A DNA stretch of 36,073 nucleotides from NCBI GenBank assembly GCA_001793895.1, contig MGIT01000002.1:25899-61971 (forward strand). Direction: 5' to 3'. Numbering within the stretch: the first letter of the stretch is position 1; each line of letters starts with the position of its first letter. This stretch comes from Candidatus Wolfebacteria bacterium RIFOXYB1_FULL_54_12. GTDB taxonomy: Bacteria; Patescibacteriota; Minisyncoccia; UBA6257; UBA9933. The translations under genes were made by a program, and so were the position numbers. Shown here piece by piece: positions 6,425 through 23,142 of the stretch. The notes below the pieces were generated by a model. The model saw only the letters and a list, made by a program, of their open reading frames with translations, was not told the DNA's origin and did no database searches.

Positions 6425-6517
6425 CCAATAACCAATAACCAATAACCAATAACAGCATACAGGGAAAGCGCATGAGAAAGAGTATCCCCGTTATAGGTTA
6501 TAGGTCATAGGTTGTGG
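6425..6517 (+). repeat. family B heptad inverted-repeat element, copy 4
   Basis: The left arm is four near-perfect AATAACC units. The right arm is GTTATAG/GTTATAG/GTCATAG/GTTGTGG. This is the clearest example of seven-base periodicity. The central loop contains GCGCATGAGAAAG, shared with copy 5. Confidence 0.88.
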
Positions 6518-6528
6518 GTCAAAAAAGT

Positions 6529-6762
6529 ATGGCAGCACGAAAATTACAGGGAACGGTTGTTTCCGATAAAATGGATAAGACACGAGTGGTAGCGGTTTCA
6601 CGCCTTGCAAAGCACCCGATCTATCAGAAGATGTACAAGGTCACCGCGCGCTTCAAAGCGCACGATGAGCAGAACGAGTACAAGATGGGCGACGTCGTGA
6701 TCATCGAAGAGACCAGGCCGGTAAGTCGCGATAAGCGCTTCCGCATCGTCGGAAAGATCTGA
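6529..6762 (+). CDS. rpsQ: 30S ribosomal protein S17 (uS17)
   Basis: S17 is an OB-fold primary binder of 16S rRNA. The frame is open from a GTG at 6514, but that lies in the repeat arm. The ATG at 6529 gives the usual size (77 residues) and the family start [18 protein letters not shown]. The signature [18 protein letters not shown] sits near the C-terminus. The gene ends in TGA, useful evidence that UGA means stop in this organism. No SD is visible. It is flanked by family B repeats on both sides. Confidence 0.95.
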
Positions 6763-6862
6763 ATTTAACCAATAACCAATAACCAATAACCGACAACAGA
6801 ATGCAGGAGTAGCGCATGAGAAAGCGCATCCCGTTTTAGGTCATAGGTTTTAGGTTATAGGT
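6763..6862 (+). repeat. family B heptad inverted-repeat element, copy 5
   Basis: The left arm is AATAACC repeats. The centre has GCGCATGAGAAAGCGCATC. The right arm is GTTTTAG/GTCATAG/GTTTTAG/GTTATAG. It precedes rplN. Confidence 0.85.
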
Positions 6863-6870
6863 CGATTATT

Positions 6871-7239
6871 ATGATACAAGAACGATCAATTTTAAAAGTG
6901 GCTGACAACTCCGGAGCGAAGACAATTCGTTGTTTCCGCATCTTGGGAGGAACCCGACGACGGTATGCGCGCATTGGCGACATTTTTGTCGCATCGGTGC
7001 AGACTGCTGAACCGCGCAAAGCGGTAAAGAAGAAAGACGTCGTAAAGGCGGTCGTTGTGCGACAGCGCAAGGCGATGAAGCGGGCCGATGGTTCGTACAT
7101 CCGATTCGATGAAAACGCGGCGGTCATCCTGAATGCAAAAATGGAACCGAACGCGACTCGTATCTTCGGACCGATCCCGCGCGAATTAAAGGAAAAGGGA
7201 TTCGAGAAAATCGTTACGATGGCGGAAGATATCGTTTGA
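6871..7239 (+). CDS. rplN: 50S ribosomal protein L14 (uL14)
   Basis: L14 forms an intersubunit bridge and is the binding site of the silencing factor RsfS. The 122-residue length is exact for bacteria. The diagnostic [18 protein letters not shown] lies at residues 10-27, and [20 protein letters not shown] is at the C-terminus. The ATG follows a family B right arm by several bases, with no SD. The gene ends in TGA. Confidence 0.97.
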
Positions 7240-12786: not shown

Positions 12787-12839
12787 TGATTTCCCTATGT
12801 AAATTACCGTCCAAATATACCCCCAATACGCGTTAGCTT

Positions 12840-13860
12840 ACCATTGTTTTAGGCAAGGACATTTGGCGGTTTTGCATGTCGGAATTCGTTAATGAATTCG
12901 TTCGGGCTTTTGCCCTGCAATCCGCAATGGAGTAGATCGTTGTATTCAGTATTCCATACGCGCAAGCGTTTGCGCAAATCGGCAAAGGAAACAAATTTTG
13001 CATCATCGTAAAATGTTTCCTGATCACTTCTATGGGACCGTTCCACGGTCCCATTTTGTGCTGGCTTACCCGGATCGATCAGATAATGGACGATGTCGTG
13101 CTCCGCACAGAACAGATCGAGCGCATGCACGGTCTTGACCGTGCAATCGGAGCGGTTGGTTGTTCCAATATACCGGTTAGTAAAAACACTCCCGTTATCC
13201 GTCTTGATCGCTTTGATCGGATGCGGGAAGCGATCCAGGACTTCTCTGAGGAATCGGATCGAGTTGCCATTGCTCTGTTCGTCGTATACAGCCAAATGTC
13301 GCCAGCGCGAAGCGCAATCAATGGCTGTATATTGGAAATACCGCTTGTTTGCTATGCGTCCAGGCACATACTTCACATCGATCTCTACGAGATCGCCCGG
13401 CTGCCGCTCCGCCCGGATGTATTTGTACGTGATCTTCTTTGTCCGATACTTCCGTACTAACCCCTCTTGCTTGAGGATTTTGCCGACGGTGCGCACGGGA
13501 ACGGATGTTCCCGTGCGCTCGAGCAGCCAGTGCAGCTTCAATGCGCAAAGCTTCTTCTCTTTGCGCAATGCAATAATCTTTTCTTTGATATGGATGGGTG
13601 TTTCTTCAGGGTGGGTGTGTGGTGTGGTTGATTTTGGGATGAGGCCTTCGGCCCCATCCCGTTTGTATGCCGCCACCCAGCGCTCCAGGGAGCGCGCACC
13701 ATGCGGACATACCTTCGCCGAGTCGACCAGTTTTATGCGCTTCTCTGCGATGGGGAGCACCCATCGCAGACGCTCTTCTTGCACCGTTTTTGCCATACTA
13801 ATAGCCATATTCCGAGCATATCGGAAAACCGCCATATGTCCTTGCACATTACCCCATGGT
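12840..13860 (-). mobile_element. IS481-family insertion sequence
   Basis: The element is about 1 kb with one transposase gene on the minus strand. Terminal inverted repeats match over 20 of 21 bases: GCAAGGACATTTGGCGGTTTT at 12853-12873 (split for length as GCAAGGACAT and TTGGCGGTTTT) against 13825-13845. ACCAT/ATGGT lies a few bases further out and I take it as the edge. I see no convincing target duplication beyond CTT. A consensus outward-facing promoter begins two bases beyond the right edge. A partial relative lies at 20641-20716. Confidence 0.8.
12849..13808 (-). CDS. IS481-family transposase (DDE)
   Basis: The protein cuts and joins the IS ends. An N-terminal helix-turn-helix region (HGARSLERWVAAYKRDGAEG, about residues 34-53) is followed by an integrase-type RNase H fold. 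The catalytic acids are in EIDVKYV, KTDNGSVF and NGTVERSHRSDQETF, giving a D-D-E triad with normal spacing. The frame stays open to 13868, but those codons cross the terminal repeat, so I start at the ATG at 13808. ATG 13796 is an alternative. The product is 319 residues with no frameshift, so the element may still be active. It lies between secY and adk, splitting an otherwise common gene order. Confidence 0.9.
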   Translation of the reverse strand: MAISMAKTVQEERLRWVLPIAEKRIKLVDSAKVCPHGARSLERWVAAYKRDGAEGLIPKSTTPHTHPEETPIHIKEKIIALRKEKKLCALKLHWLLERTGTSVPVRTVGKILKQEGLVRKYRTKKITYKYIRAERQPGDLVEIDVKYVPGRIANKRYFQYTAIDCASRWRHLAVYDEQSNGNSIRFLREVLDRFPHPIKAIKTDNGSVFTNRYIGTTNRSDCTVKTVHALDLFCAEHDIVHYLIDPGKPAQNGTVERSHRSDQETFYDDAKFVSFADLRKRLRVWNTEYNDLLHCGLQGKSPNEFINEFRHAKPPNVLA

Positions 13861-13861
13861 C

Positions 13862-13889
13862 TTGACAAATCCTACAAATCATGTATAAT
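13862..13889 (+). promoter_or_regulatory. consensus promoter at the IS edge
   Basis: TTGACA (13862-13867), 16 bases, TATAAT (13884-13889): a perfect match in both boxes. It starts two bases outside the proposed IS edge and reads away from the IS into the 147-aa gene. The same arrangement occurs at 20718-20746. Confidence 0.85.
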
Positions 13890-13956
13890 ATAAAAATATA
13901 CAGTTATAGGCCTTTCACAAATAAATAGCGTCGCAAAGCGGCAAGGAGAGAGCGTC

Positions 13957-17204: not shown

Positions 17205-17235
17205 GCCTTGAATTCAACCCTGAATCGCAACAGTG

Positions 17236-17382
17236 TGTCATTCCCGTCCGCCAGCTGGCGGAGGAATCCATTTCAATCATGTGCGGCACGCACGATAAAA
17301 TAATCTTAAATGCGCGTTCCGCGCGGAAGTGAAAGTGAAAGTGAAAGTGGAAGTGGATTCCGGCTCGGAGGCCGGAATGACA
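17236..17382. repeat. REP-like palindromes and a GTGAAA tandem tract
   Basis: TGTCATTCCCGTCCGCC...GGCGGAGGAATCCA lies at 17236-17270 and TGGATTCCGGC...GCCGGAATGACA at 17353-17382. Between them, AGTGAA-type six-base units repeat about five times (17327-17352). No gene is seen here. Confidence 0.65.
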
Positions 17383-17402
17383 ATTCAGCTGCGTACATAA
17401 TC

Positions 17403-17431
17403 TTGACAATTGTTATGCAATATGTTAGTTT
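17403..17431 (+). promoter_or_regulatory. candidate promoter of the PspA/DUF2491 operon
   Basis: TTGACA (17403-17408) with TAGTTT 17 bases downstream (17426-17431). The -35 is perfect and the -10 weak, which would fit a regulated promoter. The leader of about 60 nt contains AACCT/AGGTT. Confidence 0.5.
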
Positions 17432-17499
17432 GAAATAACCTACGAAAAGGTTTTACGTTTTCTGAACTTTTAAAATTCAATCTATATCATGGAGGAGAA

Positions 17500-17751
17500 A
17501 TGACAAATTCATTGCTGTGGATATTTTTGGGTGTTATTATGTATCATTTGCTTTCGGCTTTTCCGTTAGCTACCAAAACAAAGGTGGTCGCCTCTATCGT
17601 GGTGTCACTCATTTTGATGGTGGTTATCAAGATTGCTGGGTTTTTGATAAGCGGCATTTGGACAGTGGTCACAGTATTTGGTCCCTTCGTGTTGCTTGCC
17701 GTGGCTCTTAAGTATTTCGTTGGCTGGGCTGGAATAAAAAGAAAGGCTTAA
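17500..17751 (+). CDS. small membrane protein, 83 aa
   Basis: Family not recognised. Three hydrophobic stretches cover most of the protein (about residues 4-22, 29-52 and 55-75), and the C-terminus is basic (GIKRKA), suggesting the tail is cytosolic. A strong SD (GGAGGAG) precedes the ATG. It is the first gene of a run leading to a Ser-rich secreted protein, a DUF2491 protein and a PspA-like protein, so an envelope role is a reasonable inference. An AT-rich inverted repeat (17745-17771, GGCTTAA...TAGCC) overlaps its stop and may reduce read-through. Confidence 0.7.
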   Translation: MTNSLLWIFLGVIMYHLLSAFPLATKTKVVASIVVSLILMVVIKIAGFLISGIWTVVTVFGPFVLLAVALKYFVGWAGIKRKA

Positions 17752-17811
17752 TTTTTTTGCAAAAAATAGCCTGTAACCATCAAAATCAATATTTAACCAG
17801 AGAGGTGAGTA

Positions 17812-18837
17812 ATGAAGAAACTTTTGGCAGTGGTTATGATTTTTACACTCGGTTTTTCGGGTGTGTTTGCCGGAGTGGTAAACGCGAAGAGTGGCGGCGG
17901 AGGAGGTTTTTCTTCAAGCCGCTCATCAAGTTTTTCTTCTTCGTCGAGATCATCGTCTTCCAGCTTTGGCAATTCAAGTTCGTCAAGACCGTCGTCGTCA
18001 GGATTCAGCAACTCAAGCTCAGCAAAACCGTCACCGACGGTTTCGAAACCAGCCGGATTTTCCAATTCGGCTAGCAAACCGACTGTGGCTGCAGCTCCGC
18101 CTTCAAGCGGATTTAGTAACTCCGGTCAGGTAAAAGCGACACAAGTGGCATCGGTGGCGCCACAAGCGCCGAGTGTCAAGATGACGCCGATGCAGCAGAA
18201 GATGAATCAGGCTTATTCGAAGCAGGAGTCTACCAAGGCCTTTGCATCGTATAAGACTGAGCAGACAAAGTTCAAGGCAACGGAAGTTGCTGCACAAACG
18301 CCAAAGGCAGAACAGACGCGGGTGGTAAATAACATCAGGGTGAAAAACTATTCCTCTGGCAATTACTACGCGCGTCGGAATGTCTTCTACGACACCTATC
18401 ATTACCGAACCCCGGCTTATGCTTATTACAGCAGCCCCAGTTTCGGAATGTGGGACGGCATGTTCCTTTGGTTCATGCTTGATCACATCAATGATCGGCA
18501 GTATGCTAACATGTACTACAATCAGCAGAATAACGAGGATATGAAAGCGTGGCGCCGCGAGGCTGATCGTTTGGCTCGGGACAATGCTGAATTGCGGGCA
18601 AAGCTCAACAATCTTGATGCCGAAACCGGTAAGTTGAAAGCGCAGGGTGCGGTAATCGACCCGTCCTATGTTCCGCCTGATGCTCAGGATATGGCTCTTT
18701 CAGCCAAGGTGGTCGAAGAGAATGCCAGCAAGATCGCGGCAGTGAATACTAAGAAAGAACCTCTGGTTTGGCCTTGGGTTCTTGGTCTTTGCGCTGCTCT
18801 TGGCGGCTTCTTCTTTGTTTGGAGGAAATTTGCATGA
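17812..18837 (+). CDS. secreted/anchored Ser-rich protein, 341 aa
   Basis: Residues 1-25 form a signal peptide (KKLLAVVMIFTLGFSGVFAG), followed by a Gly run and a low-complexity Ser/Arg/Pro region to about residue 110 containing several GFSNS units. The middle is basic, then Tyr-rich (YYARRNVFYDTYHYRTPAY). It is followed by FGMWDGMFLWFMLDHIND, a charged coiled-coil stretch (READRLARDNAELRAKLNNL) and a final hydrophobic segment (WPWVLGLCAALGGFFFVW) with a basic end. This suggests an extracytoplasmic protein anchored at its C-terminus. The SD is GAGAGGTG. Its stop overlaps the start of the DUF2491 gene by four bases (ATGA), so they are translationally coupled. Exact family unknown. Confidence 0.75.
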   Translation: MKKLLAVVMIFTLGFSGVFAGVVNAKSGGGGGFSSSRSSSFSSSSRSSSSSFGNSSSSRPSSSGFSNSSSAKPSPTVSKPAGFSNSASKPTVAAAPPSSGFSNSGQVKATQVASVAPQAPSVKMTPMQQKMNQAYSKQESTKAFASYKTEQTKFKATEVAAQTPKAEQTRVVNNIRVKNYSSGNYYARRNVFYDTYHYRTPAYAYYSSPSFGMWDGMFLWFMLDHINDRQYANMYYNQQNNEDMKAWRREADRLARDNAELRAKLNNLDAETGKLKAQGAVIDPSYVPPDAQDMALSAKVVEENASKIAAVNTKKEPLVWPWVLGLCAALGGFFFVWRKFA

Positions 18838-19538
18838 TTGCAAAACTCCTGGCAGCGATCACCAAAAAGAAAGCTGCAAATTCCACACTATTTGGTGAAA
18901 AGCCGAAAGTGCGGATTGATGAGTCGTGGCCTTTGGGTATCAAGCTCGGCCGCACGGTCGTTCTTGAACAAACGCCTTTTTTGTTGGCTGACAACTCGGA
19001 AGTAAAATTCCCGGGTGAGGACAACGTGATCAAGGCGGTTGGAATTGCCGAGCCAGCGATTGCGGAAGGCGTGAAAGTTTTTCGCATCTATTTGCAAAAA
19101 GTCGCCGGCGAAGAGGAGTCAGTCCTGCAAATCTCGGTCGATAAAAAGACTGATGAAGTATTGGAAAGCATTCTTTATCGACTGGCTTGGGAAATTTTCC
19201 CCGCCAGTTCCGAAGAAGTTGCCTTATGGATGAATGAAGAAAACGGCATGCTTGGTTGGAAGGATATGAAAACGCCGACGGAAAATAAATACGAACGGGT
19301 TACACCATTTGCCAATAAGGACATGGTCAAGCCGTTTCCGTGGCGCGAACACTTCACCGACGATCCTCATATCGCCAACATCCTCCATATTGATTACGGG
19401 TCAGTTGTCTATGGTCGTGAGCTCAATGAGCAAACGACTGAATATCTGCTCGTAAGCAAGGTTGAGGAGGAGGGTAGCACCTCCATCAAAATCTATGCCG
19501 GCATCACGATTGATTCCGGTTTCATTAAAATCCTGTAA
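18834..19538 (+). CDS. DUF2491 (YjfK-like) family protein
   Basis: The 234-residue soluble protein resembles the DUF2491 family, of which E. coli YjfK is a member. Features I match are the WPLGIKLGRTVVLE segment near residue 31, the FPGEDNVIKAVG block, RIYLQKVAGEEES and the C-terminal RELNEQTTEYLLVS. Its molecular function is not established. In E. coli yjfK sits beside yjfJ, a PspA-like gene, and here a PspA-like gene also follows directly, so the association is conserved across very distant bacteria. Start codon and previous stop overlap (ATGA). No membrane segment is seen. The assignment is by recall of family features, not a search. Confidence 0.65.
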   Translation: MIAKLLAAITKKKAANSTLFGEKPKVRIDESWPLGIKLGRTVVLEQTPFLLADNSEVKFPGEDNVIKAVGIAEPAIAEGVKVFRIYLQKVAGEEESVLQISVDKKTDEVLESILYRLAWEIFPASSEEVALWMNEENGMLGWKDMKTPTENKYERVTPFANKDMVKPFPWREHFTDDPHIANILHIDYGSVVYGRELNEQTTEYLLVSKVEEEGSTSIKIYAGITIDSGFIKIL

Positions 19539-19557
19539 AGGTAAAAGGAGAAACATT

Positions 19558-20337
19558 ATGGCGGGTAAAGGAAGATTCTTTGGTTCATTGATCAGCGGCT
19601 ATTTTGCAAAGGGCATGGACGAGCTACTCAAAGGCTTGGTCAAGCTTGATCCGGAAACAGCCACCGAGGCCCAGATCGACGCTCTGCTCAAGGACTTTGA
19701 TGACATGTCTCTCGAAGTCGCCAAGGCACAGAATGAATATGCCAAGGAGCAGAAAGAGGCCGATGCGATTCAGGCGCTCTTTGACCAGCGGTTGAAGGCG
19801 GCAGAAAATCTGCAGGCCAAAATGGTTGCAGCAACCGACGAGGCCACGAAGGCGAGTTTTGAAAAAAGCCTGATGGCGCTTCTCGAGCAAATCGAGGAGA
19901 TGAAGCTGGATGTTGAGCGCGAGAAGGCCGAAGCCCTTGATGCGAAAAACCTTTATGAAGACATGAAGGCTACCATCGAGGCTTTCGCCAAACAGCTGCA
20001 GAATACCCGGAAACAGATCGAGGCTGCGAAGCGGGCGATGAAGTCCGCCGAGGCACAGAGGGCCAGGGCGGAAATGCGTGAAGCAACTGCCTTGAGTGCA
20101 TCGGGTTTGAAGACCAGCGCCAATGAGCTCAATACGGTTCTCGGTGCCATGAACAGCCTTGCCGACAAGGAAAAGACAGCCGCCATGGCCGCCGATCAGC
20201 GGGCTCGGCTGTTGACACCGACCAACATCGAAAAGGATGATGACAACATTGCCGCCGCCATGGCCGAAGTAAGCGGTGCGCCGGCAAAAAGCCAAAGCAT
20301 TGAAGAACGTCTCGCTGCGCTCAAGAACGCTGCGTAA
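19558..20337 (+). CDS. PspA/IM30-like (YjfJ-like) coiled-coil protein
   Basis: The 259-residue, almost wholly helical protein is rich in Ala, Glu, Lys and Gln, with long heptad stretches from about residue 45 to 190 (AKAQNEYAKEQKEADAIQAL and EAAKRAMKSAEAQRARAEMR). The C-terminal SIEERLAALKNAA resembles the end of PspA/IM30 relatives. PspA-type proteins bind membranes and form scaffolds under envelope stress. The N-terminus here (GRFFGSLISGYFAKGMDELL) could be the amphipathic membrane helix. The SD GGAG is seven bases before the ATG. It is last in the operon and followed by a terminator. A generic coiled-coil protein remains possible, but pairing with DUF2491 favours the YjfJ branch. Confidence 0.7.
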   Translation: MAGKGRFFGSLISGYFAKGMDELLKGLVKLDPETATEAQIDALLKDFDDMSLEVAKAQNEYAKEQKEADAIQALFDQRLKAAENLQAKMVAATDEATKASFEKSLMALLEQIEEMKLDVEREKAEALDAKNLYEDMKATIEAFAKQLQNTRKQIEAAKRAMKSAEAQRARAEMREATALSASGLKTSANELNTVLGAMNSLADKEKTAAMAADQRARLLTPTNIEKDDDNIAAAMAEVSGAPAKSQSIEERLAALKNAA

Positions 20338-20375
20338 GGCAAAAATCACAAACAAGCAAGGTCGTTTTTAACGAC

Positions 20376-20410
20376 AATCCCTTGGAAAGAAATTTCCAAG
20401 GGATTTTTTA
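20376..20410 (+). terminator. terminator of the PspA/DUF2491 operon
   Basis: AATCCCTTGGAAA (20376-20388) pairs perfectly with TTTCCAAGGGATT (20393-20405), followed by T's. The next 230 bases are AT-rich and hold no gene I can support. Confidence 0.9.
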
Positions 20411-20640
20411 TTTCCATATTTCAGTTTTAATATATTAAATTACTTACTAAATATCCTAATATTAATCATTTATAAAATATAGTACATCTTTGGGTTACTA
20501 ATCTCCATGTACCAAGTGTTATAACAGATTCAGTGTTACTAATATGAACTGGTTAAAGGGAATGAAAATATTAGGTAGGCATCTCTATATATTGATCTGG
20601 TGCTGGCAACAAAAGATAAATATCAAACAAGCCAACAGAT

Positions 20641-20716
20641 CTTGCCGACGGTGCACACGGGAACGGATGTTCCTGTGCGCTCGAGCAGCCAGTGTCCTTG
20701 CGAATTACCCACTCCT
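20641..20716 (-). mobile_element. relic of an IS481-type element
   Basis: 20643-20692 matches the internal transposase segment at 13482-13533 (GCCGACGGTGC...CTCGAGCAGCCAGTG) with few changes. The match then jumps to TGTCCTTGC-nn-ATTACCC, the right end of the intact IS at 13837-13853. It is therefore an internally deleted remnant of a related copy, and it immediately precedes a consensus promoter. Confidence 0.8.
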
Positions 20717-20717
20717 A

Positions 20718-20746
20718 TTGACAAATAGTAAATATACGTATATAAT
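20718..20746 (+). promoter_or_regulatory. consensus promoter next to the IS relic
   Basis: TTGACA (20718-20723), 17 bases, TATAAT (20741-20746). The context TGTCCTTGC..ATTACCC.......TTGACAAAT is shared with 13837-13870, including the bases just after the -35. It drives the two tiny membrane-protein genes downstream. Confidence 0.85.
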
Positions 20747-20794
20747 ATATACATGCAGTAAAGAACCTTTACAACTTAATCGGGGAGGCCCGGC

Positions 20795-20965
20795 ATGCAA
20801 TTCGGTCCATTTTTCGTACTGCTGGTTCTGCTGGCAGTGATTTCGCCGACGCAATTCTTCGCGCTCGGCCAGCGGCTCATCGCAGCGGTCTATCCGCTCG
20901 TGGAACAAGGCTTGACGCTGGCGATCGTGGTCGCCGGCATCATCTTTTTACTGAAAGGAAAATAA
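20795..20965 (+). CDS. small membrane protein, 56 aa
   Basis: A short gene with a clear SD (GGGGAGG, seven bases before the ATG). It has two hydrophobic helices (FFVLLVLLAVISPTQFFALG at about residues 6-25, and LTLAIVVAGIIFLL near the C-terminus) separated by an amphipathic stretch (QRLIAAVYPLVEQG), and a basic end (KGK). No family recognised. The next small membrane-protein gene starts 25 bases after the stop with its own SD, so the pair is an operon. Base composition and SD use differ from the core genes. Confidence 0.7.
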   Translation: MQFGPFFVLLVLLAVISPTQFFALGQRLIAAVYPLVEQGLTLAIVVAGIIFLLKGK

Positions 20966-20990
20966 GGCCACATTGGCCGAAGGAGAAGAT

Positions 20991-21224
20991 ATGGACCGTT
21001 TTATGGAGTTGTTCTTCGGTAGCCCGAAACGGCTGCTGGGGTCCGGTGTGGCGTTGCTGGTGATCTTCGCGATCATCAGCCCGGCCGGCTTCAACTGGCT
21101 CATGGTTAGGGTGTTCAACACCCTCTGGCCTTGGGGCAAGGTCGTTGGCATGCTGGCCGCCGGCTGGTATGTCATGGGGTCGATCTTTCGCCCCGCCCCC
21201 AAAAAGGGCAAAAAGGGAGATTAA
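20991..21224 (+). CDS. small membrane protein, 77 aa
   Basis: I start at the ATG at 20991, which has GAAGGAG six bases upstream, not at the TTG at 20973. The 77 residues contain a first helix at about 17-40 (GSGVALLVIFAIISPAGFNW), a second at 49-66 (GKVVGMLAAGWYVMGSIF), and a strongly basic tail (PAPKKGKKGD) that should stay in the cytosol. No family recognised. It shares the promoter of the 56-aa gene and ends one base before a perfect terminator. A two-component membrane complex or peptide is possible but unproven. Confidence 0.7.
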   Translation: MDRFMELFFGSPKRLLGSGVALLVIFAIISPAGFNWLMVRVFNTLWPWGKVVGMLAAGWYVMGSIFRPAPKKGKKGD

Positions 21225-22401: not shown

Positions 22402-22423
22402 AAAAGGTAATAAAATATATTGA

Positions 22424-22492
22424 TTGTCATCCCCGCGCAGGCGGGGATCCACTACCACTGCAAATGGATTCCCGTTTTCACGGGAATGACAG
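22424..22492. repeat. pair of REP-like palindromes before greA
   Basis: TGTCATCCCCGC...GCGGGGATCCAC at 22426-22452 is followed by TGGATTCCCG...CGGGAATGACA at 22465-22491, in opposite orientation. Only 12 bases separate the second from greA. Confidence 0.7.
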
Positions 22493-22504
22493 AGAAAAAC
22501 GAAT

Positions 22505-22993: not shown

Positions 22994-23041
22994 TGTCGTA
23001 ATAAAGACATCGTTAAAAGTGTCATCCGGTATTTAACCGAC

Positions 23042-23142
23042 ATGTACTCATGTCGCCCTGAACTCGTTTCAGGGTCTGAGTATGTTTCAGGATCTCGTGT
23101 TCATGTGACGAGATTCCGGCTCGTGGGCCGGAATGACAGAAA
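23042..23142. repeat. REP-like palindromes before lysS
   Basis: GTCGCCCTGAACTCGTTTCA, followed by GGGTCTGA, lies near 23052-23080. GAGATTCCGGC...GCCGGAATGACA lies at 23111-23140. The second ends eight bases before the lysS ATG. Confidence 0.6.

What the first reader, a model, noticed from the sequence alone, without database searches (positions are those of the whole stretch)
17403..20410. PspA-like/DUF2491 envelope module in a probable CPR genome
A four-gene operon encodes a small membrane protein, a Ser-rich exported and C-terminally anchored protein, a DUF2491 protein and a PspA/IM30-like coiled-coil. yjfJ-yjfK in E. coli pair the last two families. The operon has its own promoter, SDs, overlapping starts and a perfect terminator. 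CPR cells have unusual envelopes and an episymbiotic lifestyle, so a membrane-maintenance system acquired by transfer would be notable. The Ser-rich protein may be an uncharacterised partner.
Basis: partly seen in the sequence, partly recalled or inferred. Interest (0 to 1): 0.58.

Follow-up and report, generated by a model that had tools for sequence, protein, structure and literature searches.

The report
Mobile membrane-stress operon in a CPR bacterium
An ultra-small bacterium has recently picked up a four-gene set that probably helps hold its cell membrane together, and relatives of three of these genes sit together in soil bacteria and, next to an ion-channel gene, in several giant phages.

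Summary
The four genes at 17,500-20,337 are real, on one strand, with a strong terminator. Gene 3 is DUF2491. Gene 4 is a coiled coil that fails the PspA_IM30 Pfam model; it resembles PspA/YjfJ only weakly in profile comparison, in predicted architecture and by operon position. Gene 2, the Ser-rich protein, is a conserved partner: in Azospirillum/Bosea its relative is fused to DUF2491 in one polypeptide (signal peptide, Ser-rich part, ~100-residue domain, TM, DUF2491), followed by DUF350 and the gene-4 relative. Relatives of genes 2-4 also lie in order on five IMG/VR contigs (a sixth has genes 2 and 4), several with T4-like phage genes, preceded in four by a glutamate-receptor-like channel. 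The host is a Wolfebacteria-type CPR genome; DUF2491 is in 2 of 244 genomes of its order. The 3.3-kb segment is nearly identical between two species whose flanks differ by 5-9% and ends in an IS fragment: recent transfer. Best reading: an exported sensor docks DUF2491, which controls a PspA-like membrane scaffold. Function untested.

The parts
17337..17381 (.). short-period repeat (gtgaaagt units) at the left edge, where the two Wolfebacteria genomes differ in length; from here to 20713 they are almost identical
17403..17408 (+). TTGACA, -35-like; no acceptable -10 at 16-18 nt
   Evidence: sequence; not listed by the consensus scan
17500..17751 (+). gene 1 (P0001): 83-aa membrane protein, 2-3 hydrophobic segments; no Pfam family and no relative in the fetched alphaproteobacterial or phage loci that were compared
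17812..18837 (+). gene 2 (P0002): exported Ser-rich protein, signal peptide, conserved ~100-residue domain, C-terminal TM
18379..18699 (+). conserved domain of gene 2 (residues 190-296; FGMWDGMFLWFMLD ... WRREADRLARDNAELRAKL), shared with 5 alphaproteobacterial and 6 IMG/VR proteins
18834..19538 (+). gene 3 (P0003): DUF2491 protein, start overlaps the stop of gene 2 by 4 nt
   Evidence: PF10679, E 2e-18
19558..20337 (+). gene 4 (P0004): 259-aa coiled coil; short N-terminal helix, helical hairpin, C-terminal SIEERLAALK
20376..20405 (+). terminator-like hairpin (13 pairs, loop 4) followed by T run
20638..20694 (.). 57-bp fragment, 95% identical to the interior of the rve-transposase insertion sequence at about 12838-13850, followed by an IS-end-like TGTCCTTGC
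20713..20713 (.). right edge of the near-identical segment; in the genus-mate an IS copy abuts here

Best explanation
A horizontally mobile membrane-stress module. Gene 2 is exported, with its Ser-rich part and conserved ~100-residue domain outside the membrane, and is held by one C-terminal TM. Gene 3 (DUF2491) sits at the inner face against gene 2, as the fused homologues suggest. Together they sense envelope or ion-balance stress and control gene 4, a coiled coil that works like PspA/YjfJ: it assembles on the inner face of the membrane and limits leakage. Gene 1 is a small membrane partner that may take the place of DUF350. Shown: gene content, order, fusion, linkage in three kinds of genome, recent transfer. 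Inferred: docking, sensing, assembly, protection.
For: DUF2491 by HMM. Gene 2 and gene 3 are one polypeptide in 5 of 6 fetched alphaproteobacterial loci (L025, L026, L028, L029, L030; L027 lacks both), with the TM before DUF2491. The gene-4 relative is the third gene of those operons and stands between DUF350 and DUF1190-GSP_synth-ion channel in Indioceanicola, comparable to yjfJ in the E. coli yjfIJKLMC run. Model of gene 4: helix 6-28, hairpin 37-91/95-218; E. coli PspA 1-144 aligns over 132 of 137 residues at 2.6 A, Z 10.0. Profile comparison of 13 gene-4 family proteins with 7 PspA/YjfJ: P 4e-4, against 0.038 reversed and 0.043 for the best of 20 column shuffles. In heat-evolved E. coli, yjfIJKL is strongly up-regulated (PMC12492005, passages). 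Ion channels stand near related modules. All four frames are intact in both genomes.
Against: Gene 4 fails PF04012. The hhalign probability is only 35%, and 0.3% with smaller alignments. Unrelated helical proteins (for example YscO, Z 11.2) match its model as well as PspA does. The DUF2491 model is of low confidence and finds no fold. No ion channel or DUF350 is among the CPR genes. No function was tested, and the conditions of expression are unknown.
Confidence: 0.5

Rival explanations
1. The module is a factor for building or gating membrane complexes, ion channels above all, rather than a membrane repair system: gene 2 and DUF2491 act as sensor and assembly factor, and the coiled coil organises the channel.
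For: Ion channels stand near related modules: GluR0-like in four IMG/VR contigs, TrkA_N type in L044, ion channels in Indioceanicola and Rhizobium. Ravi et al. 2024 propose a chaperone-like role in complex assembly for several PspA partners (PMC11237479, section 19 read).
Against: No channel is in or directly beside the CPR operon; gene 1 has no channel family (only a sub-threshold CrcB hint, E 0.024).
Confidence: 0.25
2. The operon is a phage-derived host-takeover or superinfection-exclusion module that an episymbiont has kept.
For: The same gene order, Ser-rich-DUF2491-coiled coil without DUF350, is on five IMG/VR contigs; gene 2 of the window scores best against the phage proteins (123 bits for L044, 94 for L035, against 79 for the best alphaproteobacterial one).
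Against: Trees leave the CPR lineage deep and unresolved; gene 2 has the C-terminal TM of the bacterial form and lacks the substrate-binding domain found on phage versions; gene 4 scores slightly better against Bosea (150 bits) than against the phages (140 bits); no phage gene was recognised among the 10 flanking genes tested.
Confidence: 0.15
3. A passenger without use: the segment arrived recently and has not yet decayed.
For: Present in 2 of 4 genomes of the genus, near-identical, IS-associated.
Against: All four frames open in both genomes with a single in-frame 3-nt difference; the module is conserved elsewhere over large distances.
Confidence: 0.1

Closest known systems
Azospirillum/Bosea operon [exported Ser-rich::DUF2491]-DUF350-coiled coil (for example NZ_CP054617.1, NZ_CP016463.1)
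   Same: All three conserved proteins, same order, same membrane topology of the Ser-rich part
   Different: There genes 2 and 3 are fused and DUF350 stands between DUF2491 and the coiled coil; here they are separate, DUF350 is missing and gene 1 is extra
Modules on six IMG/VR contigs (for example 3300021514_000002, 364 kb; 3300041402_000314, 204 kb)
   Same: Separate Ser-rich, DUF2491 and coiled-coil genes in the same order without DUF350 on five of the six
   Different: The larger Ser-rich proteins (five of six, 533-566 aa) have no C-terminal TM; an NMT1_3 substrate-binding domain is over the cut-off in L034 and L044 and below it in L035; a GluR0-like channel gene precedes in four; the sixth (L045) has no DUF2491 found
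E. coli yjfIJKLMC / third PspA group of Ravi et al. 2024 (PMC11237479)
   Same: DUF2491 next to a PspA-like protein
   Different: No DUF2170, DUF350, DUF1190 or ATP-grasp ligase among the four genes; no Ser-rich protein among the annotated E. coli neighbours; E. coli YjfJ was not matched by gene 4 at E 0.1

Membership tests
DUF2491 (PF10679), gene 3 | score above Pfam's curated cut-off over most of the model | tested here: met
   66.8 bits against 25, model positions 4-207 of 210
PspA_IM30 (PF04012), gene 4 | score above Pfam's curated cut-off | tested here: not met
   No match in the genome or in gene 4; not among the 25 of 42 families shown for 7 members
PspA_IM30 (PF04012), gene 4 | N-terminal helix plus long helical hairpin (ESCRT-III-like monomer) | tested here: inconclusive
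   Predicted (mean pLDDT 77.5); PspA Z 10.0, Vipp1 Z 10.7, but unrelated helical proteins reach 11
PspA_IM30 (PF04012), gene 4 | profile-profile similarity to PspA/YjfJ | tested here: inconclusive
   P 4e-4 with 13 and 7 sequences, better than the reversed and shuffled controls, but probability 35%; 0.3% with 7 and 2 sequences
PspA_IM30 (PF04012), gene 4 | oligomerisation on membranes | not testable with these tools
   needs purified protein
yjfIJKLMC-type operon | DUF2170 (CesT/Tir)-PspA dyad | tested here: not met
   None of the four genes matches DUF2170 or PspA_IM30
yjfIJKLMC-type operon | DUF350, DUF1190 and ATP-grasp ligase in the operon | tested here: not met
   The operon has four genes, none of these families; the rest of the genome was not searched for them
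Ser-rich/DUF2491/coiled-coil module (named here) | all three proteins adjacent on one strand in this order | tested here: met

The most novel reading that the evidence does not exclude
A previously undescribed three-protein module, exported Ser-rich sensor, DUF2491 adaptor and remote PspA-like scaffold, passes between bacteria and jumbo phages; phages couple it to a glutamate-receptor-like channel to keep the membrane of the infected cell under control, and an episymbiotic CPR bacterium uses the same module to survive membrane damage at the contact with its host or from phage.
Probability: 0.2. Interest if true: 0.78.

Novelty: new variant of a known kind. Interest (0 to 1): 0.6.

Why it matters
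It gives DUF2491, which appears in 1 paper of the searched library, a likely physical partner and a membrane topology through gene fusion, so both can be tested. It shows a membrane-stress-like operon moving recently between CPR species in a lineage that mostly lacks PspA (1 of 286 genomes over the cut-off). It also ties the module to jumbo phages with a ligand-gated channel, which raises the question why a phage would carry it.

Tried and rejected
PspA_IM30 by HMM: rejected. Contamination or a chimeric contig: considered unlikely, because one contig joins both flanks (SecY, adenylate kinase, M24 peptidase and cation efflux to the left; glycosyltransferase, GreA, class II tRNA synthetase, DnaG to the right) and the genus-mate has the segment after the same upstream gene. 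Anti-phage defence: PADLOC gives gene 4 only weak coiled-coil hits, mostly to SMC-like proteins, and nothing for genes 1-3. Phages in GenBank: no tblastn match for gene 3, for the phage coiled coil of L033 or for the phage DUF2491 of L034; the phage Ser-rich protein of L035 matched 5 records, only in its substrate-binding half; the channel of L033 matched 12 records, only in short parts; the neighbourhood of one of them, Vibrio phage vB_VpaM_sm033, has no such module among the 8 proteins tested. E. coli YjfJ matched 2 records of that collection, both labelled Salmonella. Fold of DUF2491: mean pLDDT 65.8, no PDB match at E up to 0.001, best VIA Z 3.9; PsbP, Mog1 and EagT6 recur in the lists but too weakly to claim. 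Trees of gene 4 (13 rows) and DUF2491 (14 rows) do not place the CPR sequence. Centring a search on proteobacterial whole genomes was not possible: the centre must be a genome handle. A scan of the genome collection with gene 3 found only the genus-mate; with a single protein it reaches close relatives only.
Full report
Setting. The window is contig 2, 25,899-61,971, of an 824,713-base genome, 98% complete. A genome of the same genus (G381) is Candidatus Wolfebacteria bacterium RIFOXYD12_FULL_48_21: its contig 2 and contig MGIW01000002.1 have the same length, 44,594 bases, and the same operon. Left of the operon lie SecY, an rve transposase, adenylate kinase, an M24 peptidase and a cation efflux gene; right lie a glycosyltransferase, GreA, a class II tRNA synthetase and DnaG.

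The operon. Four ORFs at 17500-17751, 17812-18837, 18834-19538 and 19558-20337. Each start has a purine-rich stretch in front. Genes 2 and 3 overlap by four bases. A terminator-like hairpin with 13 pairs lies at 20376-20405 (terminator-like sites in the region: 10 found, 4.5 expected; this one has the most pairs). The TTGACA at 17403 is perfect but has no acceptable -10, and the scan does not list it.

Gene 3. DUF2491, E 2e-18. AlphaFold with seven sequences gives a beta-rich model of mean pLDDT 65.8 with no reliable fold match.

Gene 4. No match to PspA_IM30. The single-sequence model has a short helix and a long hairpin. VIA-align gives Vipp1 Z 10.7 (rmsd 14.5, 183 aligned) and E. coli PspA Z 10.0 (rmsd 2.6, 132 aligned), but unrelated helical proteins score the same or higher, so the fold test is inconclusive. 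A profile comparison of 13 family members with 7 PspA/YjfJ proteins gave score 33.8 and P 4e-4, in the C-terminal half; the reversed profile gave 0.038 and the best of 20 column shuffles 0.043. With 7 and 2 sequences there was nothing. I therefore call gene 4 PspA-like and not a member.

Gene 2. Signal-like N-terminus, Ser-rich stretch (28% Ser in the first 150 residues), C-terminal TM. A region of about 100 residues (190-296) is shared by 12 aligned proteins: the window's, five from alphaproteobacteria and six from IMG/VR (the Bosea L028 copy keeps the motif poorly).

Gene 1. 83 aa with 2-3 hydrophobic segments; no Pfam match and no relative in the compared loci at E 0.1, E 1 or E 0.01.

Relatives in bacteria. 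tblastn against 72,556 plasmid records found gene 3 in 14, gene 4 in 15 and gene 2 in 13, all Azospirillum and Bosea except one Indioceanicola record for gene 4. I fetched six. In five the Ser-rich part and DUF2491 are one ORF with the TM between them. In the four annotated ones of these DUF350 follows, then the gene-4 relative; the fifth, L030, has no annotation, and its ORF between the two (6494-7066) looks like DUF350 by eye only. In Indioceanicola (L027) the order is DUF350, gene-4 relative, DUF1190, GSP_synth, ion channel. E. coli has yjfI-J-K-L-M-C. Fusion implies that genes 2 and 3 work together, and with the TM between them it places DUF2491 on the cytoplasmic side.

Relatives in phages. 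Pattern-based scans of 2.9 million IMG/VR contigs gave six contigs. L033, L034, L035 and L039: GluR0-like channel (SBP_bac_3, Ion_trans_2, Lig_chan), Ser-rich protein, DUF2491, coiled coil. L044: Ser-rich protein with NMT1_3 domain, DUF2491, coiled coil, and a TrkA_N channel about 2 kb upstream. L045: a shorter Ser-rich protein and coiled coil, no DUF2491 found. T4-type major capsid (Gp23) is in 2 of the 6 records (L033, L034) and in 0 of 14 control genomes. RIIA, RIIB, QueD and QueE are near the module in L035/L038, and UvsX, DnaB-like helicase and primase in L039. So four of the six carry clear phage genes; for L044 and L045 I have only their listing in IMG/VR. These scans are not exhaustive.

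Distribution in CPR. DUF2491: 1 of 379 genomes sampled from the phylum, 2 of 244 in the order. Gene 4 family: 3 of 244 in the order, of which one (G408, E 7e-5, part of the profile) is probably a chance coiled coil. Gene 2: 2 of 101 relatives. PspA_IM30: 8 of 286 at E 0.001, 1 over the curated cut-off.

Recent transfer. Between the window and G381, the stretch 17382-20713 differs by seven bases and one in-frame 3-base gap. Neighbouring genes differ by 5.1% and 5.6% on the left and 7-9% on the right, so about 170 or more differences would be expected. Identity starts somewhere between 17007 and 17382. On the right, a 57-bp piece (20638-20694) is 95% identical to the interior of the rve insertion sequence at about 12838-13850, followed by a short IS-end-like sequence; in G381 the contig runs at this point into a copy of that element. 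Two other genomes of the genus, G379 and G380, lack DUF2491 and the gene-4 family, and the matches to the upstream and downstream genes lie only about 1.6 kb and 1.5 kb apart, against 4.4 kb here. GC of the operon is 0.493 against 0.487 for the window, so composition does not reveal the donor. Trees leave the CPR sequences deep and unresolved.

Mechanism. Shown: the parts, the fusion, the linkage, the transfer. Inferred: that gene 2 senses outside, that DUF2491 relays inside, that gene 4 assembles on the membrane. Literature: yjfIJKL was up-regulated in heat-evolved E. coli, and its authors predict a role in membrane stability (PMC12492005, abstract and passages); Ravi et al. list DUF2491 as an uncharacterised partner with predicted enzymatic activity in one PspA operon group (PMC11237479, passages and section 19). 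PMC9239133 does not contain the words Patescibacteria, candidate phyla, CPR, YjfJ or bacteriophage in its held text, and PMC11237479 has no Patescibacteria, candidate phyla or CPR. In the listings of searches for jumbo phages with ion channels or Psp proteins I saw no description of this module (listings only); one isolated Ralstonia jumbo phage, RsoM2USA, has an ORF whose best database match is named phage shock protein A (PMC8504454, passage). GluR0 as the name of a bacterial glutamate-receptor-like channel is recalled.

Noticed in passing
L033:2598-3614, L034:2614-3660, L035:2544-3557, L039:4636-5685: Four IMG/VR contigs (42-364 kb) encode a glutamate-receptor-like channel (substrate-binding domain split by an ion channel; filter motif TTTGYGD in two of the four) directly before the Ser-rich gene. 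A scan for it found these four contigs only.
   Followed up: partly
L035:6863-11092 and L038:3559-15570: The module on contig 3300010413_000016 lies among RIIA, RIIB, QueD, QueE, a Nudix hydrolase and a PRPP synthetase.
   Followed up: partly
window 12838-13892: An rve-transposase insertion sequence between SecY and adenylate kinase; a fragment of it marks the right end of the mobile segment.
   Followed up: partly
window 20718-21224: A perfect TTGACA-17-TATAAT (20718-20746) in front of two small hydrophobic ORFs (20795-20965, 56 aa; 20973-21224, up to 83 aa) right of the segment.
   Followed up: no
window about 17207-17393, 22423-22501, 23020-23140: Short intergenic sequences with many similar copies elsewhere in this genome and its genus-mates.
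   Followed up: no
L045:4916-8345: A reduced module, Ser-rich protein then coiled coil then a VWA-like protein (by eye), without recognisable DUF2491.
   Followed up: no
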